Part shown: positions 16,024-39,732 of the stretch, in pieces
How positions within the stretch are numbered: position 1 is the first letter of the stretch
Layout: every line of letters starts with the position of its first letter
DNA from: Thiorhodovibrio winogradskyi
GTDB lineage: Bacteria; Pseudomonadota; Gammaproteobacteria; Chromatiales; Chromatiaceae
Reading direction: 5' to 3'
Length of the DNA: 64,000 bases
Assembly (NCBI RefSeq): GCF_036208045.1
Contig: NZ_CP121472.1
Span: 4,785,531-4,849,530, forward strand
Program-made: the position numbers and the translations under genes
The notes under the pieces: model-generated
What the model was told of the DNA's origin: nothing
The model's database searches: none
Seen by the model: the letters and a program-made list of their open reading frames with translations, nothing else

Positions 16024-16031
16024 AACTTTCT
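16024..16031. other. Orphan 8-bp target-site copy beside ISL3 copy A
   Basis: AACTTTCT is the reverse complement of AGAAAGTT at 39725-39732. With the adjoining TCAT it reads, on the minus strand, ATGAAGAAAGTT: a start codon overlapping the stop of the GT gene at 16032. It marks one breakpoint of the inferred inversion. Confidence 0.8.
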
Positions 16032-17237
16032 TCATGCGAGGCGCTCTCTCAAAAGACGTAACCAATTCTTGAGGTCAGTCGGCAGATAGGTTCGGAAGCC
16101 AGGCTTCAGACCACGCGGATAACGCCAATGCTCGATGGGATAAGGCGCCGCGATCCGCGTAGGTTTTGAAACGAGAGTCTCTAAGATCGAAAAATACGCT
16201 TGCGCCATCGTTGAAAGGTCAAACCGACCGATGACGCTTTCCCGCGCGGCAGTCGACATCCGACTGAGTCCGTCAGGGTCTCTATGCAATTGTTCAATCG
16301 CCTGCGCCGCCGCCTGGACATCGCCGATCGGAAACAGCAGGCCATTCTCCCCAGACCGCACCACGGTCTCGGTGACGCCCTTGATCCGCGAGGCGACTGG
16401 AACGCAACCGGCCGCCATGGCTTCGACGAGAGACAATGGAAGCCCTTCGAAACGGGAGGGAAACAGAAAGACGTCATGGCTGGCCAAGACCTTGGGCACC
16501 TGCTCGGCGTCGACGCGACCGATGAAACGGACACGCTCGCCAAATCTGGCGCAGCGTCGCTTGAGTTCCGCGAGGTCGGGACCATCGCCCGCGATCGTCA
16601 ACTGACCCACGTCGGCAGGCAGACGCTCCAGGATCTCGGGTAGCCAGAAAATGCCTTTGTCCGAGTTGATGATTCGCCCCAGGGATAACAGGCGCAAGGG
16701 TCCATCCTGGCGGGGAAGGCGTGTCGCGGCTTGAAAGCGAGCCAGATCCACGGCGTTGGCAATGGCCTGCGTGCGATCGGCGGAAAAGCCGTATTGGTGG
16801 ATCAAGTCATCTCTGATCCGGGGCGAGACCCCAACGGTGGCATGCACATGGTCGCGGATGGCCCGCGCCGCCGCGTAGGTGGCCAGGGTGATGGTATGGA
16901 CGATCATCACCCGCTTGACGGCGGGATCCAGAAACCGAATCGCATTGGTGGCCACGCGGCCCGAGAGGACATTGACGAAGACGCCATCAAAACCGGCTTC
17001 CACCAGATGGCGGTTCAACCGCCGCGCCTGTTCCCGCTCATTTTCCTCGTCTCCCGCGATCACCGCTCCGTGAGACAGGTCGGATTGCCAACGCGGGTCC
17101 AGCATCGCGGCCTGCGCCTTCGGACCGACGCCAAGCCAGGACACGTCGACGCCATGCTCAGCCAGGCCCTTGCGCAGCGAGCGATAGACGCTGTAGGTGC
17201 CGCCGGTATGCGGGATGCCGAAATAGGCGAATTTCAT
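16032..17237 (-). CDS. Glycosyltransferase family 4 protein
   Basis: A 401-residue GT-B transferase, presumably adding one sugar to the lipid-linked EPS repeat unit at the cytoplasmic membrane. The N-terminal domain starts MKFAYFGIPHTGGTYSVYR. The C-terminal nucleotide-sugar domain shows LLSLGRIINSDKGI, FIGRVDAEQVPKVLASHDVFLFPSRFEGLPLSLVEAMAAGCVPV and NGLLFPIGD, the E-x7-E region of GT4. Start at 17237 follows a strong GGAGGG site and overlaps the upstream stop (ATGA). Its own stop overlaps a truncated ATG that belonged to the gene now at 39742, so it was once followed directly by another GT. Sugar specificity unknown. Confidence 0.9.
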   Translation of the reverse strand: MKFAYFGIPHTGGTYSVYRSLRKGLAEHGVDVSWLGVGPKAQAAMLDPRWQSDLSHGAVIAGDEENEREQARRLNRHLVEAGFDGVFVNVLSGRVATNAIRFLDPAVKRVMIVHTITLATYAAARAIRDHVHATVGVSPRIRDDLIHQYGFSADRTQAIANAVDLARFQAATRLPRQDGPLRLLSLGRIINSDKGIFWLPEILERLPADVGQLTIAGDGPDLAELKRRCARFGERVRFIGRVDAEQVPKVLASHDVFLFPSRFEGLPLSLVEAMAAGCVPVASRIKGVTETVVRSGENGLLFPIGDVQAAAQAIEQLHRDPDGLSRMSTAARESVIGRFDLSTMAQAYFSILETLVSKPTRIAAPYPIEHWRYPRGLKPGFRTYLPTDLKNWLRLLRERLA

Positions 17238-18253
17238 GCGCCTACCCTCCCGCGCGACCAGGCGCCGATGGTCAGTCGTTTGATGTTCCGTGCGGACCGC
17301 CCCAAAGACGACGGGAGCATCGACAACAGGAACCATTTGGCGTACAGCATGGGGGGCAAGAGCGGACGCAGTCTGGACATTTCCGCGACCACTGCCGTGT
17401 GACCTGATTCGGCCCACACCCACCGCAGCAGCATGTTGGTAATCTGGCGCCAGCGTTTGAAGGCTTGTCGATATTCCGATGGTGTCAAACATTGCCCGTG
17501 GGTCAGCAATTCATCGCGCAGCACGGCGACCGGACCGCGATAGGTATGTTGCGATTTCATCAGATTGCCGCCATGGCCTTCGCGATACCAAGTGAGATAA
17601 CGGCGGGATGCGGCGATGGGCCATTGGCGCGCAATGGCACAGTTCATCGCATAATCCTCACCGACAAAAATATCCTCGGGTTGACCGCCGATCGACCGAT
17701 AGGCTTCCCATCGAACGGCGCACGCCGTATTTGCCACGAAATTTCCATTCATCAGCAGGCGAGCGTAGCCATTTGTCAGCTCGGAGAAATCGAGTGACTC
17801 GCAAATCCCACGATGATGATTCGCATCGTAATCGGGTTTGCGCTGATAGTGCTGATTACCGAAAGTCAACCCAAAGCGCGGATTATCCAACATAAAACGC
17901 CCCTGAAACGCAAGGCGTTCTGGGAGCATCCTGTCGTCTGCATCAATAAAAACAATGATGTCTGCCTCGGCATGTTCTACTCCCATATTTCTCGCCGATC
18001 CTGGACCGCCATTCGGTTTGCGAATCAGCCGCACTGTCGAAAAGTCACGTTCCACCAATTCAGCCGTGCCATCTTTTGACCCATCATCGACGACAATGAC
18101 CTCAAACGGCGGACAGTCTTGCTGCGATAGCACGCTCTGCAGACATTCGGCAATATATGCCGCCGCGTTATAGGCAGGGATGACGACCGAGAGTTGGATT
18201 GGAATGCTTGTCGCTGTCACGGACAATCCCTCGACGACAGATGCGATGGACAA
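17234..18253 (-). CDS. Glycosyltransferase family 2 protein
   Basis: A 339-residue GT-A enzyme: LSVVIPAYNAAAYIAECLQSVLSQQ at the N-terminus, VVDDGSKDGT, the metal-binding region IVFIDADDRM, and FVGEDYAMNCAIA carrying the likely catalytic ED. The C-terminal hydrophobic stretch (MLYAKWFLLSMLPSSLG) may attach to the membrane. It overlaps the next gene by four bases and begins one base after the pyruvyl transferase gene ends, a tight operon. An internal start at residue 13 or so is possible; donor and acceptor sugars are unknown. Confidence 0.9.
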   Translation of the reverse strand: MSIASVVEGLSVTATSIPIQLSVVIPAYNAAAYIAECLQSVLSQQDCPPFEVIVVDDGSKDGTAELVERDFSTVRLIRKPNGGPGSARNMGVEHAEADIIVFIDADDRMLPERLAFQGRFMLDNPRFGLTFGNQHYQRKPDYDANHHRGICESLDFSELTNGYARLLMNGNFVANTACAVRWEAYRSIGGQPEDIFVGEDYAMNCAIARQWPIAASRRYLTWYREGHGGNLMKSQHTYRGPVAVLRDELLTHGQCLTPSEYRQAFKRWRQITNMLLRWVWAESGHTAVVAEMSRLRPLLPPMLYAKWFLLSMLPSSLGRSARNIKRLTIGAWSRGRVGA

Positions 18254-18254
18254 T

Positions 18255-19421
18255 TCATGCGAACAGGGCGCGAACAGTCGTCGGATTTATGCGGTGACTT
18301 TGGTTATGCCGCGCGAGAAAGGCGCGGATCTCGGTTTCCGCCGCCAACAGTTCATCGATTTTCTCGACGAAACGCTCAGGTTCGAGCGTCAGGTGATCAA
18401 TCACCCAATGATCGTGGCCGAAGATGTCCTCGTTGATCCCCCGTGCCTTGACGCTGTAGCCAATCGAGAGGGTCGGCACATTTTTCGACAGCGCCGCGAT
18501 GGTCGCATGGGTCCGCGCGCCAGCGAAGCAGCGCAGCCGGGCAATCACGTCTTTGAGTTGGCGCGACGACAGATCGTATCCAGGCAGCAGTTGCAACCGC
18601 TCGGATGAATGCTGAATTTTGGATTTGACCTCGGCAAGAAAGGCCGCATCGTCATTACCAGGTTGCATGACATGTGGGATCAATAGGAACGAGCTTTTCG
18701 TGTTGGCGAGGAGGGTGTCAAGCCAGCTTGCCGCCTCATTGACCCAACGATCCGGTGATGGGCGATAGCGCGCGAGCAGCGGCGAGAGATTGACGCCAAT
18801 GGCACCTTCGGCAAGCAACCGCTCGATCTCTGGCGACAGTTCCGCTGGCGAGGATTCCAGCGAAAAAGCCGGGTCTGGCATCAGCACGACGTTATCCCTA
18901 ACGCCCAGCCCGTCCAGGTAGCGCTGGGTGCGCGTCTCACGGACGACGATCCGATGAACGCGTTTCAGATTGTCGGCGGCATCGCGTTCGAATGTTGGAT
19001 CCTTGTCGAAAGGGCCGACCGATGCACCCCAGATCACCAGCTTTTTACCCGCCGCCAGGATGCGTTCATTGGCCTCGAAATAAGTTCGCGCACTCCCATA
19101 ATCCATCGAATAGTTGTCACCACCGAGCGAGAGAACCACATCGGCCCAGGGCAAAAACCGCTCGAAGTTGAATCGATGGCCCTGAATCCGCTTGGCAATC
19201 TGCCAGCGGAGACCCGGCAGCGAACGTATCTCCGGATGACAGGCATGTTTGAGTTCAGGAAGATTCAGATATGGCGTCTTCAAAACGCGATCATCCTTGA
19301 ATGAGCTATTGATAAATCTCGAATCCGGAAATGCGGATTTCAGCAGATCGTAAGTCGATAACAGGATCGCCTCGCAGCCGCGGTTTCCGGTTGATCCGTT
19401 TAATACAAATAAATGATTCAT
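18255..19421 (-). CDS. Polysaccharide pyruvyl transferase family protein
   Basis: A 388-residue protein of the WcaK/CsaB fold: MNHLFVLNGSTGNRGCEAILLS at the N-terminus, ADVVLSLGGDNYSMDYG, VIWGASVGPFDKD and a C-terminal GARTHATIAALSKNVPTLSIGYSVKARGI. Family members transfer pyruvate ketals from PEP to sugars, giving acidic polysaccharide. ATG at 19421 is preferred over a TTG at 19448 because similarity begins at MNHLF, though neither has a good ribosome-binding site. It lies between the FrhB-like and GT2 genes. Confidence 0.88.
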   Translation of the reverse strand: MNHLFVLNGSTGNRGCEAILLSTYDLLKSAFPDSRFINSSFKDDRVLKTPYLNLPELKHACHPEIRSLPGLRWQIAKRIQGHRFNFERFLPWADVVLSLGGDNYSMDYGSARTYFEANERILAAGKKLVIWGASVGPFDKDPTFERDAADNLKRVHRIVVRETRTQRYLDGLGVRDNVVLMPDPAFSLESSPAELSPEIERLLAEGAIGVNLSPLLARYRPSPDRWVNEAASWLDTLLANTKSSFLLIPHVMQPGNDDAAFLAEVKSKIQHSSERLQLLPGYDLSSRQLKDVIARLRCFAGARTHATIAALSKNVPTLSIGYSVKARGINEDIFGHDHWVIDHLTLEPERFVEKIDELLAAETEIRAFLARHNQSHRINPTTVRALFA

Positions 19422-19455
19422 CTGTTTAGCTTTAATTGGCGATAGCAACTGTTTA

Positions 19456-20874
19456 TCAAGGAATCTGCCGTAGTTTCCTGCGCGCCAAACTGATTATTCT
19501 GCCAAGGATATCGCCGTTGATTGCGCGATATTCTCGATATAAAGGCTTCATTTGGTCAAGGAAAAAAGCGATGTCATTTTTATTCCGCGCCACATCGAAC
19601 GCATCATGGCTCAGCTTTCTTAATTGCGCGCGCAAATCTTGGCGTTTTCGCTCGAATCGCGGAAAGAGAAAGATCAATGGTGCTGGTCGCTTGCGCGGGG
19701 TCCAGCAATTGTCTTTTTTCTCCGAATAAAGACGATAGGCAATGGCATCTTTTCGATGTCGCAGGCCGCCAGCTTGTGATGCGACCGCAAGCGCGATCGG
19801 TAACTCCTGAACGTCAATTCTTCCGCATTTGCTGGCCGTATCTAATAGTTTGTGAATGTCAGGATTGCGAATAATCAGAATATTCGTACCCTTGCTGTCA
19901 TTGACGAACTGCGGGAGCCAGGCATCGCCGAGAACAACGTCCGCCGTTTCTGAAAAGACATCGTCGCAGAAATCGCAAGATTTGTATTTGAATGCGCCAG
20001 CCCCCCAATCCGTGCCGAAAAGATCGCTCGCCGTGCTGATCATCTCTTGCTCACCATCGCTCGCACTGACGCAATAACGATCGGCTGGAGCGTGATCGTC
20101 CTTGACACGAAAGTCAAATGATTTCAATGCTAACGGGTCAATCCCAATTTGCCATGCCAGGCTCTCCGCATAGCGCGTACTTTTCAGATGACCACAAACG
20201 AGGCCAACGCAATATTTGATGCGTTCTTTGAATACGGGATCTTGCCGCTGAAGCAGCCGCACACTTTTGATAAAGCATGGAAGACCGACGAAGGCATAAC
20301 GACCCGGCCGATCTCGTACCGAGTGAAGAACCGAAGATAATTCGATCGGATAATAACGTGACTTGGCGCCGTCTCGAATGCTATCGGAACTATCGGATAT
20401 TGTGTAGACAAACAACGGTCCGTTGTCATCGCTGGGCGGAAGGGGTTGAACGTGAATGACGTAATCGATCAAATCTAACTTAAAAAGCTCATGGACAATC
20501 CAGGTGCCGAAACCACCCGAACTTCCCCTCGCGCGAAAATCGCCTTCGGCTACGTAGCCTGAGTAGACCGAGAAAAAATAACCGGCATTTGAATCGCGAT
20601 CACAGACGTCACCGTAAAGAGGCTGCGCGAGTTGATCTTCCGTCAGGGCCTCGTCGGAAAATGGGCACACTGTTTGAACGTCAATCGTGGCATGCGCGGA
20701 TTGCAATATTGGAATCCGTTGTGCCTCATATTGTCCATGATGATTCATCTTCATCTGGAATGGTGCGGCCATGATAGACGCGCATGCACCGCAACCCACG
20801 CAATAGCCATTCCGGATGACTGTTGCCTCAAGTCGTCCAGCGGCAGTCGCGTCATGGTGAAAGCTGTTTGTCAT
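19456..20874 (-). CDS. Coenzyme F420 hydrogenase/dehydrogenase beta subunit-like protein (EPS type)
   Basis: A 472-residue FrhB-like protein. An N-terminal CVGCGAC cluster motif (about residues 25-31) is a ferredoxin-like iron-sulfur site; RGSSGGFGTWIVHEL and FVGLPCFIKSVR, then CVGLVCGH and CDFCDDVFSETADVVLGDAW, are the usual catalytic-domain signatures. FrhB-like proteins occur in many polysaccharide clusters next to pyruvyl transferases, where their reaction is not defined and F420 use is not assured. It starts within two bases of the flippase stop. Confidence 0.85.
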   Translation of the reverse strand: MTNSFHHDATAAGRLEATVIRNGYCVGCGACASIMAAPFQMKMNHHGQYEAQRIPILQSAHATIDVQTVCPFSDEALTEDQLAQPLYGDVCDRDSNAGYFFSVYSGYVAEGDFRARGSSGGFGTWIVHELFKLDLIDYVIHVQPLPPSDDNGPLFVYTISDSSDSIRDGAKSRYYPIELSSVLHSVRDRPGRYAFVGLPCFIKSVRLLQRQDPVFKERIKYCVGLVCGHLKSTRYAESLAWQIGIDPLALKSFDFRVKDDHAPADRYCVSASDGEQEMISTASDLFGTDWGAGAFKYKSCDFCDDVFSETADVVLGDAWLPQFVNDSKGTNILIIRNPDIHKLLDTASKCGRIDVQELPIALAVASQAGGLRHRKDAIAYRLYSEKKDNCWTPRKRPAPLIFLFPRFERKRQDLRAQLRKLSHDAFDVARNKNDIAFFLDQMKPLYREYRAINGDILGRIISLARRKLRQIP

Positions 20875-20875
20875 T

Positions 20876-22387
20876 TCAGCCCTTTCTCCCTTTGATTGTC
20901 ACCAATGTAGTTTGGTATATATCCATTATTTCGATGCGCACGTCCTTGATCGTCAGGCCCGCCAGTAAATAAAAAACCAATGCGACTGGAAGAAAAATGA
21001 CAATCCCTGTTGTTGCATTTACGATCTCCAAGGACGACCTTAAGCCGATTAAGGCCAGTAACAGGAAAAGCGCCAATGCCAGAAAAGGCAAGAAAACGTT
21101 AAGGAAATCAGTTCTTGAAACAGGAATATGTCGGCTCGCGTAAACAAGAAAGAAGGGGAGCCGAATCAATAATCCGGATAGTGAGTATGCGGCGATAATA
21201 CCCATGCTGCCCCATATGGAACCTATAGCCACCGAGACGGCTATAATGCCGAGCGTCATCAGTTTCCATTTGAGCAGAGCATTAGCCTTGCCGGCCGCGA
21301 TCAACAGGATACTCGTTATGGTTGCCACCGGTTCCACTAAGGAAAAGACGGCGAGTAGACGAAACATCGGGACAGCGGCGTCCCAACCGGGACCAAGGAA
21401 GATGTCCACAATCCAATCAGCCAGCACGACCATGGAGACGGTGATGAACATCGTCAACAATGACACCTTGCGAATCAACGACAGCGCGGCCCGCCTGAAT
21501 CGCTCTGGATCACCAGCAACCCGGCAAAGCGCGGGTTGCGCCACGTTCATCACCGGCGGGAGGATCTGAGTCGAAGGGATCGCCGTCAGGGTGTTGGCGC
21601 GGTTATACAAACCGAGTTGTTGCGCGCCTCCCACCAGGCCGACAACAAAGGGCGTGAGGTTCGAGGCGAGATAACCGACGAAGTTTGCACCAGTCAGACT
21701 GATGCCAAATCTCAACATCGGCCGGACGCCGGTGCCGCGCAACGGCGCGCCAGGGCACCAGTCGCTTGCCAGCCAGACCAGTATGACTTGGGATGCCGTG
21801 GTGCTCAGCGTCAAGATGACCAGTGACCAGTACCCCAGCCCGCCCCAAGCGGAAACGATTCCGGCCAAGACGCCGCATGTCATGGAGATCACATCAATGC
21901 GCGCGAGCACCTTGAATTGCATCTGGCGTTTGAGTAAAGCCGTGTGCTGAACGGCCAAACCGCCGATCAAGAAGGACATCGAAAGGACAACACCGATCCA
22001 GGTCAGACGTGGTTCGTCATAGACCAGGGCGAGCGCCGGTGCGCAAGCGATCGTCAGGATGGTCAACAGGAGGCCAAGGGCGACATTGATCCAGAAGAGA
22101 TTGGAGATTTGCCCTTGAGTGACATCCGGACGCTGGATCGTCGCCATGGATAAGCCGCCATCCATGAATTTACTCAATAAGCCGGTCAGAATCGTGACCA
22201 TCGCGACGAGGCCAAAATCCGAGGGGCTGAGCAAACGGGCTAGCACCGCGATGGAGGTCAACTGGATGACGAACTTGAAGCCCTGAGCAACGAAAGTCAC
22301 GCCCGTGCTGCGTATCGTGTGTACTTTGAGGTCACCCAGTAGGTGATCCGTCGAGAGATGGTCCGTTTTTTTTATGGAGGAGTTCAA
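20876..22387 (-). CDS. Lipopolysaccharide/EPS flippase (Wzx-like, MOP superfamily)
   Basis: A 503-residue integral membrane protein with about 12-14 hydrophobic segments, e.g. FVIQLTSIAVLARLLSPSDFG, LFWINVALGLLLTILTIACAPALAL and FLALALFLLLALIGL. The N-terminal ARLLSPSDFGLVAMV is the signature of the polysaccharide transporter branch, which moves lipid-linked repeat units across the inner membrane. It is the first gene of the minus-strand EPS operon. Substrate unknown. Confidence 0.9.
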   Translation of the reverse strand: MNSSIKKTDHLSTDHLLGDLKVHTIRSTGVTFVAQGFKFVIQLTSIAVLARLLSPSDFGLVAMVTILTGLLSKFMDGGLSMATIQRPDVTQGQISNLFWINVALGLLLTILTIACAPALALVYDEPRLTWIGVVLSMSFLIGGLAVQHTALLKRQMQFKVLARIDVISMTCGVLAGIVSAWGGLGYWSLVILTLSTTASQVILVWLASDWCPGAPLRGTGVRPMLRFGISLTGANFVGYLASNLTPFVVGLVGGAQQLGLYNRANTLTAIPSTQILPPVMNVAQPALCRVAGDPERFRRAALSLIRKVSLLTMFITVSMVVLADWIVDIFLGPGWDAAVPMFRLLAVFSLVEPVATITSILLIAAGKANALLKWKLMTLGIIAVSVAIGSIWGSMGIIAAYSLSGLLIRLPFFLVYASRHIPVSRTDFLNVFLPFLALALFLLLALIGLRSSLEIVNATTGIVIFLPVALVFYLLAGLTIKDVRIEIMDIYQTTLVTIKGRKG

Positions 22388-23580: not shown

Positions 23581-23618
23581 CGGCGGGTCGTGGTACTCGG
23601 GTTCATCGAGGACGCGTT

Positions 23619-24022: not shown

Positions 24023-24074
24023 TGCTTAGGGACTGGATGGTGCCGATATCGCGCGAAAGGTCTCAGTGGGGTTC

Positions 24075-29255: not shown

Positions 29256-29338
29256 TATAGTGGACCCCAATTTTAGGACACTAAATTAAGTTAGTTTTGC
29301 CTCATCTGAAGAGACTTGTAAAGACTTGGAGAGAGCAG

Positions 29339-29632: not shown

Positions 29633-30621
29633 GCGTGCGTCGCGGGTGGATCGACATGGGCGGCCTTGATGATGGCGGGTTAGCGGTCAGTCGCCAATGT
29701 GCGCTGCTTGGCGTACATCGCTCTGGAGTGTATGCACACCGCCATGATCGTATTGCCGAGCCGAGCGAACTGGATCAAAAGTTGTTGCGGCTGATTGATG
29801 CGGAATACACCAAGAGACCATTTTATGGGAGTCGACGCATGGTTGTGATGCTGCGCGCACAAGGCTATGCGGTCAGTCGCAAACGCGTTCAGCGTCTCAT
29901 GGGCGTTTTAGGTTTAGCCGGCATGTTGCCTGGGCCTCATACAAGCAAGCCGCATCCTGAGCACAAAATCTACCCCTACTTGTTGCGTGGGCTGGCCATT
30001 GTACGGCCCAACCACGTCTGGAGCAGTGACATCACCTATGTGCGACTCGCGCATGGATTTGCCTACCTGGTGGCCATCATCGACTGGTACTCACGACGAG
30101 TCCTTTCTTGGAGATTGTCGAACACAATGGACACGGGCTTTTGCATCGATTGCTTGGAGGATGCGCTGCGCCACCATGGCCGCCCGGAGATCTTCAACAC
30201 CGACCAGGGCGCGCAGTTTACCAGCCTCGCCTTCACCCAGGTGTTGCGTGACGCCGAGGTGGCCATCAGCATGGATGGGCGCGGCAGAGCCCTGGACAAC
30301 GTCTTCGTCGAGCGTCTGTGGCGCAGCGTCAAATGGGAGGACATTTACCCCAAGGGCTATGAGACGCTCTCAGAGCTGTTCATGGGCCTCTCGGCGTATT
30401 TCCCCTTCTACAACGGTGAACGCCCTCACCAGGGGCTTGGCTACCGAACGCCGGACGATGTGCATGTGAGCGGCAAAGGAGGTGGTGTCGTGGTTGCTGA
30501 TCACTTTGGCGATCACCCGCCAGCGGAGTCGTCGGCTCCGCTACGCTCCGCCGACGACTCCGCTGGCGAAGAACTGGGGCAGCGCCAATCCGCTGCGACT
30601 GAACTGGGCGCGCTAACTTAA
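29629..30621 (+). CDS. IS3-family transposase OrfB (rve integrase domain)
   Basis: A 330-residue DDE integrase-type protein: HTH_21 region PFYGSRRMVVMLRAQGYAVSRKRVQRLM, then VWSSDITYVRL (first Asp), IFNTDQGAQFTS (second Asp) and LDNVFVERLWRSVKWEDIY (Glu), followed by YNGERPHQGLGYRTPDDV. All catalytic residues are present. The C-terminal extension (SSAPLRSADDSAGEE) is encoded by a strong palindrome near 30523-30567. Active transposase is expected as the OrfAB fusion. Confidence 0.92.
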   Translation: MSVRRGWIDMGGLDDGGLAVSRQCALLGVHRSGVYAHRHDRIAEPSELDQKLLRLIDAEYTKRPFYGSRRMVVMLRAQGYAVSRKRVQRLMGVLGLAGMLPGPHTSKPHPEHKIYPYLLRGLAIVRPNHVWSSDITYVRLAHGFAYLVAIIDWYSRRVLSWRLSNTMDTGFCIDCLEDALRHHGRPEIFNTDQGAQFTSLAFTQVLRDAEVAISMDGRGRALDNVFVERLWRSVKWEDIYPKGYETLSELFMGLSAYFPFYNGERPHQGLGYRTPDDVHVSGKGGGVVVADHFGDHPPAESSAPLRSADDSAGEELGQRQSAATELGALT

Positions 30622-30662
30622 ATTCGGGGGAAACTGTCCTTGACATGGGGTCCACCTCAAAC

Positions 30663-30893
30663 GTCGGACCCGACAGCGGATGGGCGACTGATTATTACAG
30701 GATCTCACTTAACTTCGACATGGAAAACTGGGCATTCAGTCAGAATGGGAGCCTCCAGGGTCTCTACCACGAAAACAACAATATCTATTCCAGCTACTTC
30801 GAGTCTGCAAGCGTTCCGGAGCCGTCAACGCTCGCGTTATTGGGCCTAGGTCTCGCTGGTATCGGTTTCCGCAGGCACATGAAAGGAATGTGA
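30663..30893 (+). pseudogene. PEP-CTERM sorting-domain protein, C-terminal fragment
   Basis: The frame GWATDYYRISLNFDMENWAFSQ, IYSSYFESAS ends with the PEP-CTERM signal: VPEPSTLALLGLGLAGIGF, a hydrophobic helix, then RRHMKGM. Such proteins are exported and processed by an EpsH-type exosortase and usually go with EPS production. The 5' part including the signal peptide is cut off by the IS3 element. Two terminator copies follow. Confidence 0.8.
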
Positions 30894-31156: not shown

Positions 31157-31671
31157 TGCGGCACCGAAGTCCATGCGCGTAATCAAGCCGCTGGTGCCCC
31201 ATGGGCCAGACTCACCGCCGTGCCATCCGCTACCCAGCGGAGACCAACACCAGCCACCCTATGACTTGCCGAAACAACTGAACTCTCGGTTTTGAGCCGG
31301 GTGACGGGCGCGGGGGTCTTGGCGGCATGGATGCCGCCATGAAGCCTACAGGGATGTATCCACGGCGTCCCCCGCGGCCGTTACCCGGCCCAAAACTACC
31401 CCAAGAGTAGATCATCCTGACATTGAATCTATGGCGCTAGCTAGTCGGTTCAGCGATACAAACAGGGGAATAGGGGCCAGGGTGGAATTATTGTTGAGTT
31501 CTCCTGAGACGCGGCGCAAAGCACTGCGCATTCCACAGCATCCGGCCACCCATTTTACCGTCATCCGGCCGCACCGCGGCTCCCACCACGCATCACCATC
31601 GGCTCAGAGTCCGAGCAAGGTCGATACGCCGCGCGATTGTCCGCGCTGTTGCGTCTGGTTAGACTGGCCGC
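31157..31671. other. Intergenic region before the Rpn array
   Basis: No gene seen. It contains a palindrome GGCGGCAT-GG-ATGCCGCC (31321-31338), the motif AATAGGGGCCAGGGTGG near 31483 shared with 6895-6912, and just before 31672 the conserved Rpn leader GTCTGGTTAGACTGGCCGC. Confidence 0.55.
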
Positions 31672-32580
31672 ATGCGCCATCCCATCGACCCCAAGATCGA
31701 TTGTGTCTTCAAGGCCTTGCTCGGCTCGCAAGCGAACCGGGCGCTGCTGATCCATTTCCTCAATGCCACGCTGGGTCAGGATCTTGCCGGCCCCCTGACG
31801 GAGGTTGAGATCCTCAACCCCTACAACGAGCGCAAGTTTCTCGACGACAAACTCAGCATCGTCGACGTCAAGGCTCGCGACCAGGCCGGGCGGCTCTATC
31901 AGATCGAACTGCAACTGCTCAATCTCCCCGAACTGCCCGCGCGCATGCTCTATGGCTGGGCCGATCTCTACAGCGCCCAGTTACAGGACGGCGAACCCTA
32001 TGAGCATCTCCGCCCGACTTACGCCATCTGGCTGCTGGGACAGACCCTGCGTCCCGGCCTGTGCGAATGGTTTCACCGCTTTCGGCTGCGCGATGACCAG
32101 GGCCGGGAACTGCTCGACCACGGTGGTCTCTACCTGTTGGAACTGAGCAAATTCGCCGCCGAGACCGTGGTCACCGAACTGGAGCGCTGGCTGAAGTTCT
32201 TCATCGAAGCGCCCCGCCTCGACGAATCGCATCTGCCCGAGTGGATGCACACCCAAGAGATGCACCAAGCCATGAGCACCCTAAAAGCCTTCTCCGAGAA
32301 AGAACGCGCCTACCACGCCTACCAGGCGCGGCAGAACTACCTGCGTCAGCAGATCAGTATCCAGCACCATCTCGACGCCTTGCAGGTCGAGGCGCGGCAG
32401 GAGCGGGCGGCAAAAGAGCAGGAGCGAGCGGCAAAAGAGCAGGAGCGGGCGGCAAAAGAGCAGGAGCGGGCGGCAAAAGAGCAAGCGCAGCGGTTCGCCG
32501 AGCAGGAGCGGATCGCGAAAGAATCGGCCCTGGCTGAAATCGAGCGCCTCAAGGCACAACTGCGCGATCAGGCGGATTAG
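31672..32580 (+). CDS. Rpn-family recombination-promoting nuclease/putative transposase
   Basis: A 302-residue intact member of the Rpn set. Catalytic Asp65 and Glu79-x-Gln81 are conserved; it has NERKFL where the others have NEREFL. The coiled-coil tail has four ERAAKEQ heptads then AQRFAEQERIAKES, the same tail type as the copies at 7342 and 10436. It sits 155 bases before the group II intron-like segment, mirroring the order in array A. Confidence 0.88.
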   Translation: MRHPIDPKIDCVFKALLGSQANRALLIHFLNATLGQDLAGPLTEVEILNPYNERKFLDDKLSIVDVKARDQAGRLYQIELQLLNLPELPARMLYGWADLYSAQLQDGEPYEHLRPTYAIWLLGQTLRPGLCEWFHRFRLRDDQGRELLDHGGLYLLELSKFAAETVVTELERWLKFFIEAPRLDESHLPEWMHTQEMHQAMSTLKAFSEKERAYHAYQARQNYLRQQISIQHHLDALQVEARQERAAKEQERAAKEQERAAKEQERAAKEQAQRFAEQERIAKESALAEIERLKAQLRDQAD

Positions 32581-32735
32581 AAACGACCGGGGCAGACGGG
32601 ACACATAACGAAATTCCGGGTACATATACTGAATAACGGGAAGTTTCTTCATCAATCCGCTGCATCACGCCCGCCCAGCGCCCGCACCGGGGCTCCGGCC
32701 GCGCATCAACATCGACTCAGAGGTAATAGGGGCCA

Positions 32736-33535
32736 GTGCGGCCTGGCAAGGACGCGTGTTCTAGCGGGTGAGAGTCCCGCCTGGGTCATCGTGAGCCGCG
32801 AGCCCGGTATCAAGCCTTGCGGCGCGAAGGGTAACTGACGCGACGATGCGTAGGCATGAAAACAGGCGAGGTGCAAAGGTAGCGGGTGAAGCCGCCCCTG
32901 AAGGTGTAGAGCCCCGAAAATTACGCTGGAGAGTGCCGACGGGTTTGGCCCCCCGGCAGGCAACACGGATGTCGCGTCATGGTCAGTGGCATGGAGACTC
33001 CCCGGGGTCCCAGGCCGTATCGAGCCTTACATTGAGAACACGTGGTAACCAGGGAGATCCAACATTCGGTCTGCGGGAAGGGCACCGATGAACAAGTCTG
33101 ATAAACGAGGACATCGGCGGTGTTTGTTGGAAGTCGGAGCCACTCGTGAGAGCGTTGACGCCTGGTAATGCGGATCGAGCAACGGAGTGGCAGTTTGGGA
33201 TATTGTTTCGGTATAACACGATCATACACCGAGAGGACTTAAGTGCGTGACAACGAGAGCCGAAGCGATTCACACCAATGGAGCGAAGAGCGAGAAGCAT
33301 GGGTGGTCTGATGGAAGGAGGGCCTTCTGTGTTGATGGGCGAGAGTCTATCCCTTGGTGAATGCCCCGAACTAGGAGCCGGATGGTGTAACACTCCAAGT
33401 CCTACTGCTCCGAGCCGAGTAACGAAGCTGTGCATGGTCAAAATAGTGTGGCACCGCCGGGAAACCAGGCGGAAACAGAGAAAACAAACCTTGACCTAAA
33501 CGCGGACAAGTTCCCGGCTTACTCTCCGGCTTGAA
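32736..33535 (+). mobile_element. Group II intron-like ribozyme segment without reverse transcriptase
   Basis: It starts GTGCGGCCTGGCAAGG and shows a long run of stem-loops and GNRA-like loops typical of domains I-III. Near 33370-33410 GGAGCCGGATGGTGTAACAC resembles a degenerate domain V. No reverse transcriptase/maturase frame is present, so it would depend on a protein in trans or be dead. The 3' boundary is approximate. A 270-base 5' piece lies inverted at 6916-7187 with the same flank (AGGTAATAGGGGCCA). Confidence 0.5.
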
Positions 33536-33540
33536 TTATC

Positions 33541-33790
33541 TTTCGAAGTCAAGACCTGATCGACCCGCTGCTCGAAACGATGATGCGATGAATAAGGAGA
33601 GCAGGGACTGTTCACAATTCACCTGTTTCTCGCGTTGCTGAACAGGCTCAACCGATCAGCGCAGGCGCTGGCGTCGCGGCGGGGGCGATTCCTGATGACT
33701 TGGCACCTGGGTTTGACGGGTTTCACGGCGCTCTACCCATCCGACATGGATGCCGGATTCAACAATAATGGTCAGTGGCCGTGCTGGCAC
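33541..33790. other. Remnant between intron segment and DUF2887
   Basis: No intact gene. It matches 6638-6850 in inverted orientation, including a frame reading MTWHLGLTGFTALYPSDMD. Unrecognised protein remnant. Confidence 0.4.
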
Positions 33791-34648
33791 CTATAGCTCC
33801 TTCCCGAGCAGGCTGTCCACGCTGTCGGTGTCGAGGATGTCATCGAGCCAGACATCGAGCTGCGCGACCGCCGCCGCGTCGATGCGCTGCTCGGCCGCGG
33901 TGGACAGACGACCGAAACGGCGTTTGATCTGCCGCTTGAGGGTGTTCGCCTTGCCCTTGGCCTCGCCCTTGGCCTCGCCCTCGACCTTGCCCTCGGCAAA
34001 GATGGATTGATAGGCGCGGGTCTCTTGGATGGGGGTCACCAGATTCAACATAGCCCAGATCTCCTGTGCGGTCAGACCGCAAAAGCGTTCGAAAAACCAA
34101 AATTCCATGACTTGCGATAACAGCTCGCGCGCATCAGGCGGGAGCGGCGCCGTCTGGATCCCTTGCCAAAGCTCCGGGGCGCGGGCGCGCAATTCCGCCT
34201 CGTCCTCGATCAGCAGCGGCGCGAACACCGCCAGATAGGGATTCTCCGGCTCGCGCGCCAGCCAGTCCGGCAGGATCTGCTCCAGGATGACGATGCGCAC
34301 CATGTCGGGCGAGGTGCATAGCCCGCCGGGATAACCCGGGACATCGCCTTCGCGAAGAAACACGCCGATGCCGATGACATCCCGCGTCGGACACTGTTCG
34401 CCGTAGAGTCCGATCTTAGCCAGCAGATTGTAACCGGCCCGCTCCGAACCTTGCCCCTGGAATTCGACCACATAGACCGGCCCGGCGTGCCCCTCGGGTT
34501 CCAGCAGTCCGTCTAGCCGCCGTTCCACCGTCCTGAGCGTGGTGGAGCTGAAACGATAGGCACCTTCCAGCCGCATCCCGCCGGTCAACACCCGAAACGC
34601 CTCGGCACCGGCGGATAGAAAGAGATAGATGGGGTGGTCGGTTTTCAT
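33791..34648 (-). CDS. DUF2887 / Rpn-type PD-(D/E)XK nuclease family protein
   Basis: A 285-residue intact copy, the inverted counterpart of 5768-6637. It has D46 in RLDGLLEP and E62-x-Q64 in VEFQGQ; the C-terminal EGEAKGEAKGKA repeat is four residues shorter than in array A. The start overlaps the stop of the FkbM fragment (TGATG). Nuclease activity is inferred from the family. Confidence 0.85.
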   Translation of the reverse strand: MKTDHPIYLFLSAGAEAFRVLTGGMRLEGAYRFSSTTLRTVERRLDGLLEPEGHAGPVYVVEFQGQGSERAGYNLLAKIGLYGEQCPTRDVIGIGVFLREGDVPGYPGGLCTSPDMVRIVILEQILPDWLAREPENPYLAVFAPLLIEDEAELRARAPELWQGIQTAPLPPDARELLSQVMEFWFFERFCGLTAQEIWAMLNLVTPIQETRAYQSIFAEGKVEGEAKGEAKGKANTLKRQIKRRFGRLSTAAEQRIDAAAVAQLDVWLDDILDTDSVDSLLGKEL

Positions 34649-35196
34649 CAGCACCGGCTCCCGGCGCGCGGAAGCCGACCCCGCGCCAGCGGCGCGCTGA
34701 TGCAGGCGTCCAGGCGCTGAATGGGTACCCGCAACACCCCGGCCTCGTCCATGCCGAAGAGGGTCTTTTGACGCTCACCCAAGGCGAGCAGCGAGGAGTA
34801 GTCGGCGCGGGTGGCGAGGTGCAGTTCGCCCTCGCCGGGCGCGGCGCCGAGGGCGCAGGCCTGGATCTCGGCCCGACCACGAGTGACACGGGCGAGCTTG
34901 GCGCGCGGCTCTGGCAGCGGCTCGAAGCAGATCAGCCGCGCCCGCGGCCAGCGCAGGCGGGCATAAGTGGCGAACTGGCCCTTGTTGGCGCCGACGTCGA
35001 TGACGGCGGCGAAGCGTTCGCGCCCAAGGGCGCTGTCGTGCTCCAGGGTGGCGGCGACGCCCTGCAGCAAGGCCGGCCAGCAGGCGGGGCACTGTGCAGG
35101 AGCTTGAGGTATTTGCGCAGTCTTGGAGCCATACGGGAGGTTCGTTGTGGTGAGCGCGTTGTTGTAGGACGAATCGTAACCGAACTTACCCTGCAC
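34648..35196 (-). pseudogene. FkbM-family methyltransferase, N-terminal half (copy 3, frameshifted)
   Basis: Same truncated FkbM module as at 5286 and 12662 (VIDVGANKGQFATYA, CFEPLPEP, QRLDACI). Two extra bases near 35095 shift the frame before CPACWPALLQG. The open frame therefore starts further upstream (MQGKFGYDSSYNNALTTT) instead of at MAPRLRKYL. The second half is missing as in the other copies. Confidence 0.75.
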
Positions 35197-35395
35197 CGTT
35201 AATGATTGTCCCTTTACTTATCACCATGCCCAGCTGGGCATTGGCATTCATTCATCTGCGTGACTTCGATCTGTATAGACTAGCCAGAAGACCAAGACCA
35301 AGACCAAGCGCTGTGGTTGACTATGGGTTATGTCCGTCTCTATCTCGATACGCCGCGCGATTGTCCGGCCTGTTGAGTCTGGTTAGACTGGCCGC
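35197..35395. other. Divergent spacer, inverted copy of 12393-12661
   Basis: No gene. It repeats the CCCAGCTGGGC motif, the TGGTCT-type run (here AAGACC) and the Rpn leader. The leader carries a few substitutions (GTTGAGTCTGGTTAGACTGG). Confidence 0.5.
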
Positions 35396-36325
35396 ATGCG
35401 CCATCCCATCGACCCCAAGATCGATTGTGTCTTCAAGGCCTTGCTCGGCTCGCAAGCGAACCGGGCGCTGCTGATCCATTTCCTCAATGCCACGCTGGGT
35501 CAGGATCTTGCCGGCCCCCTGACGGAGGTTGAGATCCTCAACCCCTACAACGAGCGCGAGTTTCTCGACGACAAACTCAGCATCGTCGACGTCAAGGCCC
35601 GCGACCAGGCTGGGCGGCTCTATCAGATCGAACTGCAACTGCTCAATCTCCCCGAACTGCCCGCGCGCATGCTCTATGGCTGGGCCGATCTCTACAGCGC
35701 CCAGTTACAGGACGGCGAACCCTATGAGCATCTCCGCCCGACTTACGCCATCTGGCTGCTGGGACAGACCCTGCGTTCCGGCCTGTGCGAATGGTTTCAC
35801 CGCTTTCGGCTGCGCGATGACCAGGGCCGGGAACTGCTCGACCACGGCGGTCTCTACCTGTTGGAACTGAGCAAATTCGCCGCCGAGACCGTGGTCACCG
35901 AACTGGAGCGCTGGCTGAAGTTCTTCATCGAAGCGCCCCGCCTCGACGAAACGCATCTGCCCGAGTGGATGCACACCCAAGAGATGCACCAAGCCATGAG
36001 CACCCTAAAAGCCTTCTCCGAGAAAGAACGCGCCTACCACGCTTATCAGTCGCGGCAGAATTACCTGCGTCAGCAGATCAGTATCCAGCGCCATCTCGAC
36101 GCCTTGCAGGTCGAGGCGCGGCAGGAGCGAGCGGCAAAAGAGCAGGAGCGAGCGGCAAAAGAGCAGGAGCGGGCGGCAAAAGAGCAAGCGCAGCAGCTCG
36201 CCGAGCAGGAGCGGACGGCGAAAGAACAGGAGCGGACGGCGAAAGAACAGGAGCGGCTCGCGAAAGAAGCGGCCCTGGCCGAACTCGAGCGCCTCAAGGC
36301 ACAACTGCGCGATCAGGGGGATTAG
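35396..36325 (+). CDS. Rpn-family recombination-promoting nuclease/putative transposase
   Basis: A 309-residue intact copy with Asp65 and Glu79-x-Gln81. The coiled coil has three ERAAKEQ heptads then AQQLAEQ, two ERTAKEQ and ERLAKEA, so the ERTAKEQ unit is also duplicated relative to siblings. It ends ALAELERLKAQLRDQGD. Spacing to the next Rpn gene is about 140 bases, each with its own leader. Confidence 0.88.
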   Translation: MRHPIDPKIDCVFKALLGSQANRALLIHFLNATLGQDLAGPLTEVEILNPYNEREFLDDKLSIVDVKARDQAGRLYQIELQLLNLPELPARMLYGWADLYSAQLQDGEPYEHLRPTYAIWLLGQTLRSGLCEWFHRFRLRDDQGRELLDHGGLYLLELSKFAAETVVTELERWLKFFIEAPRLDETHLPEWMHTQEMHQAMSTLKAFSEKERAYHAYQSRQNYLRQQISIQRHLDALQVEARQERAAKEQERAAKEQERAAKEQAQQLAEQERTAKEQERTAKEQERLAKEAALAELERLKAQLRDQGD

Positions 36326-36464
36326 AAAAGACCGGCACGGACCAGGTCCATGACAGGACGCCCGCACCCCGGCTCCCGCCACGCATCGCCATCGGTTCAG
36401 AGGCCAAGCAAGGTCCATACGCCGCGCGATTGTCCGCGCTGTTGCATCTGGTTAGACTGGCCGC

Positions 36465-37373
36465 ATGCGCCATCCCATCGACCCCAAGATCGATTGTGTC
36501 TTCAAGGCCTTGCTCGGCTCGCAAGCGAACCGGGCGCTGCTGATCCATTTCCTCAATGCCACGCTGGGTCAGGATCTTGCCGGCCCCCTGACGGAGGTTG
36601 AGATCCTCAACCCCTACAACGAGCGCGAGTTTCTCGCCGACAAACTCAGCATCGTCGACGTCAAGTCCCGCGACCAGGCCGGGCGGCTCTATCAGATCGA
36701 ACTGCAACTGCTCAATCTCCCCGAACTGCCCGCGCGCATGCTCTATGGCTGGGCCGATCTCTACAGCGCCCAGTTACAGGACGGCGAACCCTATGAGCGT
36801 CTCCGCCCGACTTACGCCATCTGGCTGCTGGGACAGACCCTGCGTCCCGGCCTGTGCGAATGGTTTCACCGCTTTCGGCTGCGCGATGACCAGGGCCGGG
36901 AACTGCTCGACCACGGCGGTCTCTACCTGTTGGAACTGAGCAAATTCGCCGCCGAGACCGTGGTCACCGAACTGGAGCGCTGGCTGAAGTTCTTCATCGA
37001 AGCGCCCCGCCTCGACGAATCGCATCTGCCCGAGTGGATGCACACCCAAGAGATGCACCAAGCCATGAGCACCCTAAAAGCCTTCTCCGAGAAAGAACGC
37101 GCCTACCACGCTTATCAGTCGCGGCAGAATTACCTGCGTCAGCAGATCAGTATCCAGCGCCATCTCGACGCCTTGCAGGTCGAGGCGCGGCAGGAGCGAG
37201 CGGCAAAAGAGCAGGAGCGAGCGGCAAAAGAGCAGGAGCGAGCGGCAAAAGAGCAAGCGCAGCAGCTCGCCGAGCAGGAGCGGACGGCGAAAGAACAGGA
37301 GCGGCTCGCGAAAGAATCGGCCCTGGCCGAAATCGAGCGCCTCAAGGCACAACTGCGCGATCAGGGGTATTAG
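36465..37373 (+). CDS. Rpn-family recombination-promoting nuclease/putative transposase
   Basis: A 302-residue intact copy. Conserved core (IVDVKSRD, YQIELQ); substitutions K-S at 68 and YERL for YEHL distinguish it. Three ERAAKEQ heptads, then AQQLAEQERTAKEQERLAKES, ending LRDQGY. In tandem with the neighbours at 35396 and 37513. Confidence 0.88.
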   Translation: MRHPIDPKIDCVFKALLGSQANRALLIHFLNATLGQDLAGPLTEVEILNPYNEREFLADKLSIVDVKSRDQAGRLYQIELQLLNLPELPARMLYGWADLYSAQLQDGEPYERLRPTYAIWLLGQTLRPGLCEWFHRFRLRDDQGRELLDHGGLYLLELSKFAAETVVTELERWLKFFIEAPRLDESHLPEWMHTQEMHQAMSTLKAFSEKERAYHAYQSRQNYLRQQISIQRHLDALQVEARQERAAKEQERAAKEQERAAKEQAQQLAEQERTAKEQERLAKESALAEIERLKAQLRDQGY

Positions 37374-37512
37374 AAAAGACCGGCACTGACCAGGTCCATG
37401 ACATGACGCCCGCACTGCGGCTCCCACCACGCATCCCCATCGGCTCGGAGGCCAAGCAAGGTCGATACGCCGCGCGATTGTCCGCGCTGTTGCGTCTGGT
37501 TAGACTGGCCGC

Positions 37513-38146
37513 ATGCGCCATCCCATCGACCCCAAGATCGATTGTGTCTTCAAGGCCTTGCTCGGCTCGCAAGCGAACCGGGCGCTGCTGATCCATTTCC
37601 TCAATGCCACGCTGGGTCAGGATCTTGCCGGCCCCCTGACGGAGGTTGAGATCCTCAACCCCTACAACGAGCGCGAGTTTCTCGACGACAAACTCAGCAT
37701 CGTCGACGTCAAGGCCCGCGACCAGGCCGGGCGGCTCTATCAGATCGAACTGCAACTGCTCAATCTCCCCGAACTGCCCGCGCGCATGCTCTATGGCTGG
37801 GCCGATCTCTACAGCGCCCAGTTACAGGACGGCGAACCCTATGAGCATCTCCGCCCGACTTACGCCATCTGGCTGCTGGGACAGACCCTGCGTTCCGGCC
37901 TGTGCGAATGGTTTCACCGCTTTCGGCTGCGCGATGACCAGGGCCGGGAACTGCTCGACCACGGCGGTCTCTACCTGTTGGAACTGAGCAAATTCGCCGC
38001 CGAGACCGTGGTCACCGAACTGGAGCGCTGGCTGAAGTTCTTCATCGAAGCGCCCCGCCTCGACGAATCGCATCTGCCCGAGTGGATGCACACCCAAGAG
38101 ATGCACCAAGCCATGAGCACCCTAAAAGCCTTCTCCGAGAAAGAAC
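37513..38146 (+). pseudogene. Rpn-family gene truncated by ISL3 copy B
   Basis: Identical in type to its siblings through KAFSEKER (residue about 211), where the ISL3 end begins. The frame then runs a few codons into the IS (LSYVWYG) and stops. The entire nuclease core is present and only the coiled-coil tail is lost, so a shortened nuclease could still be made. Confidence 0.85.
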
Positions 38147-38192
38147 GGCTCTCTTACGTTTGGTATGGGTAACCGATTTTTTACACAGCAGG

Positions 38193-39449
38193 TTAAGCCG
38201 AAAGGGTGGCACACGCTGCTGCATCAAAGGGACAAGCGGGCAGGCGGGTGAGCTTGCCGGCGATCAGGTAGGCGATGGTGATCAAATGCTTCACCGTGCC
38301 GTAGCCACGGGCTTTGGCTTTGGCGGCCTGGATCTGGCCATTGATGGCTTCAACACGACCGTTGGTCAGGCGCGAATCGAACGCGTTAAGCACGCCTTCC
38401 CAATGGTCCTTGATCGTCTGAGCGACCTTCTTCATCGGCTCAAGGCGGCAGCGACGCGCCCAACTGACCCAGGCTTTTAGTAAGGGTTCGGCTTCTTCAC
38501 GGGAGGTCGCGGTGCGGAAAATCTCGCGCAGCGCCTCCTTGATTCGCCAGGCACGGTGGGTTTTGAGATTGAGCCGACGCAGGTCGGCGAACTGTCCGAT
38601 CTGGCGGCGCGTCCAGTCGCTTTTGTCCTTCAGCCATAGGTAGCGCGAACGCTTCAGACCGGGTTCGGTTTTCACCTCCGCGCGACGCACCTCATCAACG
38701 GCTTTGTTGACCATTTGAATGACATGGAACTCATCGAAGGTGATGTCGGCCCAGGGCAAGTGTTCCGCGACGCCGGCCTGATAAGCGCTCGACATATCGA
38801 TGCAGACCGAGCGGATGTTCTCGGCGCAGCCGCCATGGGCCTCAAGATCCTCGGCGAATTGATCGACCACCTCCGCCTTGCGCCCCTCGGTGGCGAACAC
38901 CAGTCGCTCAGCCTCCATATCATGGAACAAGCTAATGTAGTGATGTCCGCGCCGCGCGGCGGTCTCATCGAGGCCGATGTCCTTGACGCTGGAGAAATCC
39001 TCCTGCGCACGGGCGGCATCGACATAGGACTCCAGCACGCGCCACACACGCATGTCGCTCACGCGCAGCAAGCGCGCGACCCCAGCCACCGGCATGGCCC
39101 GGCACAAGGTCACAATCAAGGCTTCCATCAGTTGGGTGAAGCTGGTGTTGGGCCGCGCCCAGGGCACGGGAATTTGCGTTGTCTTGCCGCACTGCGCGCA
39201 ACGCACCCGCGGCACCTTCGCCTGCAGATACGCCTCGTATTGGAAGAAGTTCAGATGCCGCCATTCGCGCGCTTGGGTGTCATGAACCGGCTGATGCTCG
39301 GTGCCGCAATGCGGGCAGGGAAAGTGCGCCCCACGTTGATAGCCGAGCGCGAAGTCGATGCGTCCAGCCACTGGATCGAAGCGCACATCATCAACAAACC
39401 AGGGAGCAGACAAGCCCAGGGCAACAGAGAACAGCGACGTGGTTTCCAT
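38193..39449 (-). CDS. ISL3 family transposase
   Basis: A 418-residue transposase with the zinc-binding cysteines CPHCG and CAQCG and the complete DDE triad (GLDETA, CIDMSS, GRVEAING). It differs from copy A at CIDMSS. It is preceded by the same long inverted repeat. Probably active. Confidence 0.93.
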   Translation of the reverse strand: METTSLFSVALGLSAPWFVDDVRFDPVAGRIDFALGYQRGAHFPCPHCGTEHQPVHDTQAREWRHLNFFQYEAYLQAKVPRVRCAQCGKTTQIPVPWARPNTSFTQLMEALIVTLCRAMPVAGVARLLRVSDMRVWRVLESYVDAARAQEDFSSVKDIGLDETAARRGHHYISLFHDMEAERLVFATEGRKAEVVDQFAEDLEAHGGCAENIRSVCIDMSSAYQAGVAEHLPWADITFDEFHVIQMVNKAVDEVRRAEVKTEPGLKRSRYLWLKDKSDWTRRQIGQFADLRRLNLKTHRAWRIKEALREIFRTATSREEAEPLLKAWVSWARRCRLEPMKKVAQTIKDHWEGVLNAFDSRLTNGRVEAINGQIQAAKAKARGYGTVKHLITIAYLIAGKLTRLPACPFDAAACATLSA

Positions 39450-39463
39450 GATCAGGCCTCCGA

Positions 39464-39634
39464 GGCCTGTGGATATGTGGACGCGTCCTGCGGACCGGCC
39501 CGAGCCCTACGGGACGTGTGGACAACCCCGGTATCGCGCCGAGCAAGCATCGCGGGAAGCCTGCAAGATCGGGGGGCGGCGCGCTCCCGGGGTTGCCCAC
39601 ACTCTCGGGCCTCGCGCCCACATACCCACAGGCC
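39464..39634. repeat. Long imperfect inverted repeat in ISL3 copy B
   Basis: Same structure as 14536-14706: outer arms GGCCTGTGGATATGTGG and CCACATACCCACAGGCC, inner arms around CAACCCCGG. Its conservation in both copies argues for a function in the element. Confidence 0.8.
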
Positions 39635-39724
39635 CTACAACTGGTTGAACATTAATTTTCTCGGAAAGATGCCGCTTCGCGGCCCTGCTTTCAAGCCAAA
39701 ACCCATACCAAACGTAAGAGAGGC

Positions 39725-39732
39725 AGAAAGTT
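39725..39732. other. Orphan 8-bp target-site copy beside ISL3 copy B
   Basis: AGAAAGTT, directly followed by ACTGTCGCC and the ATG at 39742, all in one frame. It is the partner of 16024-16031 and marks the second inversion breakpoint. Confidence 0.8.

What the first reader, a model, noticed from the sequence alone, without database searches (positions are those of the whole stretch)
16024..39732. IS-mediated inversion split one exopolysaccharide operon into two opposed halves
Seen: two near-identical 1578-bp ISL3 copies in inverted orientation, with outside 8-mers AACTTTCT (16024-16031) and AGAAAGTT (39725-39732) that are reverse complements. Joining the minus-strand sequence ending at 16032 to 39725 gives ATGAAGAAAGTT followed by ACTGTCGCC ATG in one frame. 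That restores the full start (MKKVTVAMLG) of the GT at 39742, with an ATGA overlap to the GT stop at 16032, exactly the overlap style used elsewhere in the operon. Inference: ISL3 inserted at the start of that GT gene, then recombined with the other copy and inverted about 22 kb. The ancestral ten-gene order is flippase, FrhB-like, pyruvyl transferase, GT2, GT4, GT, Wzy-like, GT4, GT4, GT4. If reversible, this could act as an on/off switch for polymerisation.
Basis: partly seen in the sequence, partly recalled or inferred. Interest (0 to 1): 0.92.

Follow-up and report, generated by a model that had tools for sequence, protein, structure and literature searches.

The report
Jumping-gene inversion split a sugar-coat operon
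Two copies of a common jumping gene bracket a 22-kb stretch of what is very probably a purple sulfur bacterium's chromosome; that stretch was flipped in the past, cutting a ten-gene polysaccharide operon into two halves facing away from each other and clipping the start of one gene, a well-resolved case of a known kind of accident that does not look like a working on/off switch.

Summary
Two 1578-bp ISL3 copies (14446-16023, 38147-39724; inverted, 10 differences) have flanking 8-mers AACTTTCT and AGAAAGTT that pair as one broken target duplication. One relative (G117) has GT4a (48% identical), the clipped GT (45%), a Wzy-like gene, a GT, GT4c and GT4d adjacent on one strand. All 26 strong repeat pairs lying left of copy 1 or inside the segment have the orientation an inversion predicts, so one flip restores both the operon and a direct-repeat array. 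Orthologous starts show that the ATG at 39742 is an internal residue; the gene has lost MKKVTVA.

Two corrections. The 8-mer alone is weak evidence: another copy of this IS has the same 8-mer as its duplication. The switch idea fails on anatomy: flipping back leaves the IS inside the GT start, so neither orientation has an intact gene. Variants shared with other IS copies, and reported circle-type ISL3 transposition, favour recombination between two resident copies over one-step replicative inversion, without settling it.

The parts
14446..16023 (+). ISL3-family insertion sequence, copy 1 (transposase 14721-15977)
   Evidence: inverted repeat I1; ends defined from 5 genomic copies; Pfam PF01610 and NCBIfam NF033550
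38147..39724 (-). ISL3-family insertion sequence, copy 2 (transposase 38193-39449)
16024..16031 (.). one half of the broken 8-bp target duplication (AACTTTCT)
   Evidence: 8-bp length established on L002, L005 and L039
39725..39732 (.). other half of the broken target duplication (AGAAAGTT); also codons of the lost GT N-terminus
14438..14445 (.). outer flank of copy 1 (GGACTTCT); no matching duplication
38139..38146 (.). inner (left) flank of copy 2 (GAAAGAAC), inside a truncated PD-(D/E)XK gene; no matching duplication
20876..22387 (-). Wzx-type flippase, first gene of the ancestral operon
   Evidence: Pfam PF13440/PF01943; NCBIfam MOP flippase model matched below its cut-off
19456..20874 (-). 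FrhB-like protein
   Evidence: Pfam PF04432/PF04422
18255..19448 (-). polysaccharide pyruvyl transferase
   Evidence: Pfam PF04230
17234..18253 (-). family 2 glycosyltransferase
   Evidence: Pfam PF00535
16032..17237 (-). GT4a glycosyltransferase (ORF opens at 17492; homology and an ATGA overlap put the start at 17237, 401 aa)
   Evidence: 48% identical relative in L035
39742..40956 (+). GT4-type glycosyltransferase whose first 7 codons (MKKVTVA) were cut off by the IS
40976..42274 (+). Wzy-like membrane protein (8 hydrophobic segments; no Pfam or NCBIfam hit; 30% and 37% identical to the genes after the GT relatives in L035 and L036)
42290..43396 (+). GT4b glycosyltransferase
43393..44586 (+). 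GT4c glycosyltransferase
44565..45755 (+). GT4d glycosyltransferase, last gene of the ancestral operon
5197..13618 (.). left arm of the repeat array (PD-(D/E)XK transposase-family genes and others); direct to itself, inverted to the right arm
31566..38146 (.). right arm of the repeat array, inside the inverted segment

Best explanation
A ten-gene Wzx/Wzy-type polysaccharide operon (flippase, FrhB-like, pyruvyl transferase, GT2, GT4a, GT, Wzy-like, GT4b, GT4c, GT4d) was broken by an inversion bounded by two ISL3 copies. Most likely route (inferred): one copy inserted at the first codons of the sixth gene, duplicating AGAAAGTT; homologous recombination with an older, oppositely oriented copy in the neighbouring repeat array then inverted the 22-kb segment between them. 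The result is two half-operons transcribed away from each other, a sixth gene without its first seven codons, and a split repeat array. The present state is most likely a loss or reduction of this polysaccharide pathway and not a switch position. Shown: IS identity and ends, one broken duplication, gene order in a relative, repeat orientations, clipped start. Inferred: the route and the effect on the pathway. The confidence given is for the inversion at the ISL3 copies having split one operon, by either route; within that, recombination between two resident copies is about 0.65 and one-step replicative inversion about 0.27.
For: Inverted IS pair and cross-matching 8-mers. Intact 8-bp duplications at L002 and L005 and in a family relative. 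G117 has GT4a-GT-Wzy-GT-GT4c-GT4d uninterrupted on one strand. Of 369 class genomes (own included) searched with the GT4a N-terminal domain, 3 match: own, G117 strongly, G383 weakly at E=4e-4. Relatives of the GT begin upstream of the residue aligned to M39742. Repeat orientations at >=90% identity and >=250 bp: 6 of 6 left-left direct, 5 of 5 right-right direct, 15 of 15 left-right inverted. For two resident copies: the GC end of copy 2 shares 27T, 28G, 64A and 100G with L005, while copy 1 agrees with L002 and L003 at all ten sites; transposition through a circle is reported for ISL3-like ISPst9 (PMC3812183, passages).
Against: Only one relative has GT4a next to the GT. Of the other three loci with a GT relative, G202 has a methyltransferase and then a flippase upstream of it, G259 has only distant GT4/GT2 matches, and G350 has the downstream block without GT4a and with GT4c before GT4b. 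In G117 GT4a and the GT are about 150 bp apart with no ATGA overlap, and the genes upstream of GT4a are not those of the window apart from a flippase. L005 carries the same 8-mer, so target preference weakens that match. The other two flanks (GGACTTCT, GAAAGAAC) do not pair, so the older copy must already have lost its duplication in a separate event. At IS position 14, L005 agrees with copy 1, against the two-lineage reading; copy 1 and L002 are identical over 1578 bp, so later copying or conversion has blurred IS history.
Confidence: 0.88

Rival explanations
1. One-step inversion (a rival on the route only): a single older IS in the repeat array attacked AGAAAGTT at the GT start by intramolecular replicative transposition, giving inversion, IS doubling and an inverted 8-bp duplication at once. 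The IS would never have sat inside an uninverted operon.
For: Gives exactly the observed flank pattern from one donor with unmatched flanks, and needs one event fewer (flanks).
Against: The copies differ at 10 positions and their GC ends share variants with different genomic copies, so later gene conversion would be needed. Transposition of ISL3-like ISPst9 through a circular intermediate is reported (PMC3812183, passages), which does not directly give inversions.
Confidence: 0.27
2. Reversible switch: recombination between the IS copies flips the segment back and forth and turns polymerisation on and off.
For: Inverted arms of 1578 bp at 99.4% identity can recombine; the ten ORFs are open.
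Against: A simulated flip leaves the whole IS directly upstream of the clipped GT in either orientation. The joined junction is not found elsewhere in the genome. No sigma-70-like site on the + strand was found in 39000-41000 (weak evidence).
Confidence: 0.05
3. No inversion: two unrelated gene clusters that happen to be flanked by IS copies sharing a preferred target 8-mer.
For: The element favours such targets, and L005 has the same 8-mer. Three of the four loci with a GT relative lack GT4a beside it.
Against: Contiguous order in G117, in-frame continuity with homologous codons upstream of 39742, and repeat orientations.
Confidence: 0.04
4. Assembly artefact at the repeats.
For: Many long repeats lie nearby.
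Against: The genome is one contig. The sizes of the three genus genomes match three circular PacBio chromosomes with >500x coverage in PMC10609205.
Confidence: 0.02

Closest known systems
Inversions by homologous recombination between inverted IS copies (e.g. IS481 in Bordetella pertussis; example recalled, PMC4888882 seen only as a listing and start of abstract)
   Same: Inverted IS copies bound the inverted segment, and one pair of flanking 8-mers is cross-paired
   Different: Here the breakpoint is inside an operon at a gene start, and the ancestral order can be read from a relative; the second flank pair does not match
ISL3 family insertion sequences (ISTfe1, ISAtc1 and ISAtc3 among the closest annotated plasmid hits)
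   Same: Transposase domains and 8-bp duplications; 50-51% protein identity to these elements
   Different: Best plasmid match is a Marinobacter nauticus ISL3 transposase at 57.6%; the best place in each of the 3231 plasmid records with a match is below 60% identity
IS-based polysaccharide phase variation such as IS492 in Pseudoalteromonas (recalled, no call)
   Same: An IS interrupts a polysaccharide gene
   Different: There precise excision restores the gene (recalled); here inversion cannot

Membership tests
ISL3 family insertion sequence | ISL3 DDE transposase | tested here: met
   copy 1: PF01610 E=1.7e-73; NF033550 346 bits against a cut-off of 180; copy 2 has the same 418-aa ORF length
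ISL3 family insertion sequence | imperfect terminal inverted repeats and 8-bp target duplication | tested here: met
   ends compared over 5 full copies; intact 8-bp duplications at 2 of 5 own copies (L002, L005) and at L039; that these features define the family is recalled
IS-bounded inversion | two IS copies in inverted orientation at both breakpoints | tested here: met
IS-bounded inversion | cross-paired target duplications | tested here: inconclusive
   one pair matches (AACTTTCT/AGAAAGTT), the other (GGACTTCT/GAAAGAAC) does not
IS-bounded inversion | collinear uninterrupted order in a relative | tested here: met
   G117 locus L035 for GT4a through GT4d; 1 of 4 loci with a GT relative
Invertible phase-variation switch | one orientation yields an intact functional gene or promoter | tested here: not met
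   simulated flip keeps the IS at the GT start
Invertible phase-variation switch | both orientations present in a population | not testable with these tools
   no reads held; only the present order in the one-contig assembly

The most novel reading that the evidence does not exclude
The IS pair keeps recombining, so the population is a mixture in which the GT-Wzy-GT block is sometimes downstream of the operon promoter (through the IS) and sometimes orphaned. Polymer length or amount would then be graded, even though the GT start is clipped in both states.
Probability: 0.06. Interest if true: 0.55.

Novelty: new member of a known kind. Interest (0 to 1): 0.32.

Why it matters
It is a cleanly readable case of operon break-up by an IS, with the ancestral gene order, the target site and the flipped segment all recoverable. 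It also warns that annotating these as two separate clusters would miss that they are one Wzx/Wzy pathway, probably not working as it stands. The test of residual switching is direct if the original long reads are available.

Tried and rejected
Composite-transposon reading: the outermost flanks (GGACTTCT and AGAAAGTT) do not match, so the 22-kb unit did not move as a composite transposon. Other inverted repeats as breakpoints: the array repeats could also invert, but their boundaries do not fall at the operon break. The second inverted IS pair (29256-30666 and 62307-63718) has a possible 3-bp duplication (AAC) at its first copy and none that I saw at the second, so I did not treat it as an inversion partner. 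Relatives: 51 of 55 genomes matched the whole GT at E<=0.001, but no listed match outside own began before query residue 103 (the list was cut), so they look like general GT4 matches; the best in the genus mates were 6.4e-9 and 2.4e-12. The same search with GT4a also gave general GT4 matches. The named-genome scan for the GT gave 3 distant loci only. The phylum search with A1 gave 11 of 398 genomes at E<=1e-40 (own included), and I did not examine the neighbourhoods of the other ten. Literature: no paper in the library held all of 'IS-mediated inversion', 'polysaccharide' and 'operon'; some searches gave only general context, seen as listings and starts of abstracts. Passages of PMC6350997 describe copy-out for IS2-like elements, not for ISL3. 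I make no claim that this locus is undescribed: only bear on it, and PMC10609205 was seen as found passages, with no hit for 'exopolysaccharide' or 'slime'.
Full report
Organism and assembly. The window is C1:4785531-4849530 of a single-contig 5,478,625-bp genome. The two genus mates have contigs of 5,417,120 and 5,466,623 bp. These three sizes match the 5.48, 5.42 and 5.47 Mbp circular PacBio chromosomes of Thiorhodovibrio winogradskyi, T. frisius and T. litoralis (PMC10609205, found passages). The genome encodes two proteins over the Photo_RC cut-off. I therefore take it to be T. winogradskyi DSM 6702 (inference from sizes). A repeat misassembly is unlikely.

Observation. The two ISL3 copies are 1578 bp each, inverted, with 10 differences. 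The true ends were set by comparing five full genomic copies: one end begins GGCTCTCTTACG ('GG end') and the other GCCTCTCTTACG ('GC end'). With these ends, L002 has an intact ACAAATTG duplication, L005 an intact AACTTTCT, and a 79%-identical element in G006 an intact CGCTTTGT. L003, copy 1 and copy 2 have none of their own. The GG flank of copy 1 and the GC flank of copy 2 pair as one duplication (AGAAAGTT), as an inversion predicts. The remaining two flanks, GGACTTCT and GAAAGAAC, do not pair. Because L005 has the same 8-mer, the match is less improbable than it looks.

Ancestral order. A search of 369 class genomes (own included) with the GT N-terminal half found 5: own, G202 (51%), G117 (41%), G350 (35%) and a weak G259. 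The GT4a N-terminal domain found 3 of 369: own, G117 (49%) and a weak G383. In G117 (L035) the genes run, on one strand: flippase, sulfotransferase, acyltransferase, GT4a (48%), GT (45%), Wzy-like (30%), a GT with no match to GT4b at 1e-6, GT4c (40%), GT4d (56%). GT4a and GT, now about 22 kb apart on opposite strands in the window, are neighbours there (about 150 bp apart, no overlap). FrhB-like, pyruvyl transferase and GT2 are not upstream in G117, so the order of the first four genes rests on the window alone. G350 (L036) has GT, Wzy-like, GT4c, GT4b and GT4d in that order, without GT4a. G202 (L034) shares the GT and one distant GT4 match, with a methyltransferase and then a flippase upstream; G259 (L037) has only distant matches.

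Clipped gene. Codons upstream of 39742 read K-V-T-V-A and align with the starts of relatives (SVAMLGAR in G202, FLVAQLGAR in G117). Between the stop inside the IS end and 39742 there are eight in-frame codons, none of them ATG, GTG or TTG (sequence), so the first usable start is 39742. The protein has lost its first seven residues, presumably most of the first strand of the N-terminal domain (inference). The empty site reads MKKVTVAMLGAR with an ATGA overlap; 2 of the 8 other junctions have the same overlap.

Second, independent sign of inversion. At >=90% identity and >=250 bp, all 6 repeat pairs within 1-14445 are direct, all 5 within 16024-38150 are direct, and all 15 between the two are inverted. 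The pairs come from a few repeat units and are not independent of each other. Three further pairs of that strength were left out of the count: the ISL3 pair itself, the pair 29256-30666/62307-63718 (one member inside the segment, the other beyond 39.7 kb, inverted), and 47724-48545/61136-61956 (direct). Flipping the segment turns the array into one direct array running up to and past the IS, while also rejoining the operon.

Route. Recombination between two resident copies and a one-step replicative inversion predict the same flanks. Of the ten differences between copy 1 and copy 2, copy 2 agrees with L005 at four (27T, 28G, 64A, 100G), while L002 and L003 agree with copy 1 at all ten. The G006 element and the L006 fragment both carry C at 27 and G at 100, so 27T (copy 2, L005) and 100C (copy 1, L002, L003) look derived, on different lineages. 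Position 14 points the other way: copy 2 keeps the outgroup base while L005 shares that of copy 1. The evidence is moderate. A paper on an ISL3-like circle states that transposition through a circular intermediate was confirmed for ISPst9 (PMC3812183, passages). I give about 0.65 to recombination and 0.27 to one step.

Switching. In a simulated flip with the crossover placed at IS position 800, the 1578 bp upstream of the GT differ from the present state at only 3 bases, and the GT4a end and the GT start remain on opposite sides of the IS. Flipping can change only what lies beyond the IS. The joined junction, searched in the genome with up to 2 mismatches, gave one match, the present IS-GT junction. 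The promoter scan of 39000-41000 found no sigma-70-like site on the + strand, which is weak evidence. A phase switch of the kind proposed is therefore unlikely.

Verdict. Real, and correctly read as a past inversion; ordinary in kind; the switch claim should be dropped unless reads show otherwise.

Noticed in passing
window 3681 to about 7.1 kb beyond the window end (C1:4789211-4856668): In both genus mates the two VWA (bat-like, name recalled) genes lie within about 160 bp of each other; here about 67.5 kb, including the whole polysaccharide locus and the repeat array, sits between them. No exact direct repeat of 10 bases or more was found between 400- and 500-bp stretches at the borders.
   Followed up: partly
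window 5197-13618 and 31566-38146: Array of direct repeats with PD-(D/E)XK transposase-family genes (PF12784), a DUF2887 gene and a weak FkbM-like ORF, now split by the inversion.
   Followed up: partly
L003 (C1:2665839-2667420): ISL3 copy with copy-1-type variants in its first part, four variants shared with L005 in its last part, and no target duplication: looks like another recombination product, so this IS may have rearranged the chromosome elsewhere.
   Followed up: no
L002 (C1:139361-140948): ISL3 copy identical to window copy 1 over 1578 of 1578 bases with an intact duplication, suggesting a recent transposition.
   Followed up: partly
window 29256-30666 and 62307-63718: Second inverted pair of nearly identical IS copies (rve integrase core); the first copy seems flanked by a 3-bp duplication AAC, none seen at the second.
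   Followed up: partly
window 13719-14445 and 37513-38146: An unidentified ORF (no Pfam hit) and a PD-(D/E)XK gene are both cut off at the left ends of the IS copies; the unmatched flanks imply an earlier deletion or recombination at the older IS.
   Followed up: partly
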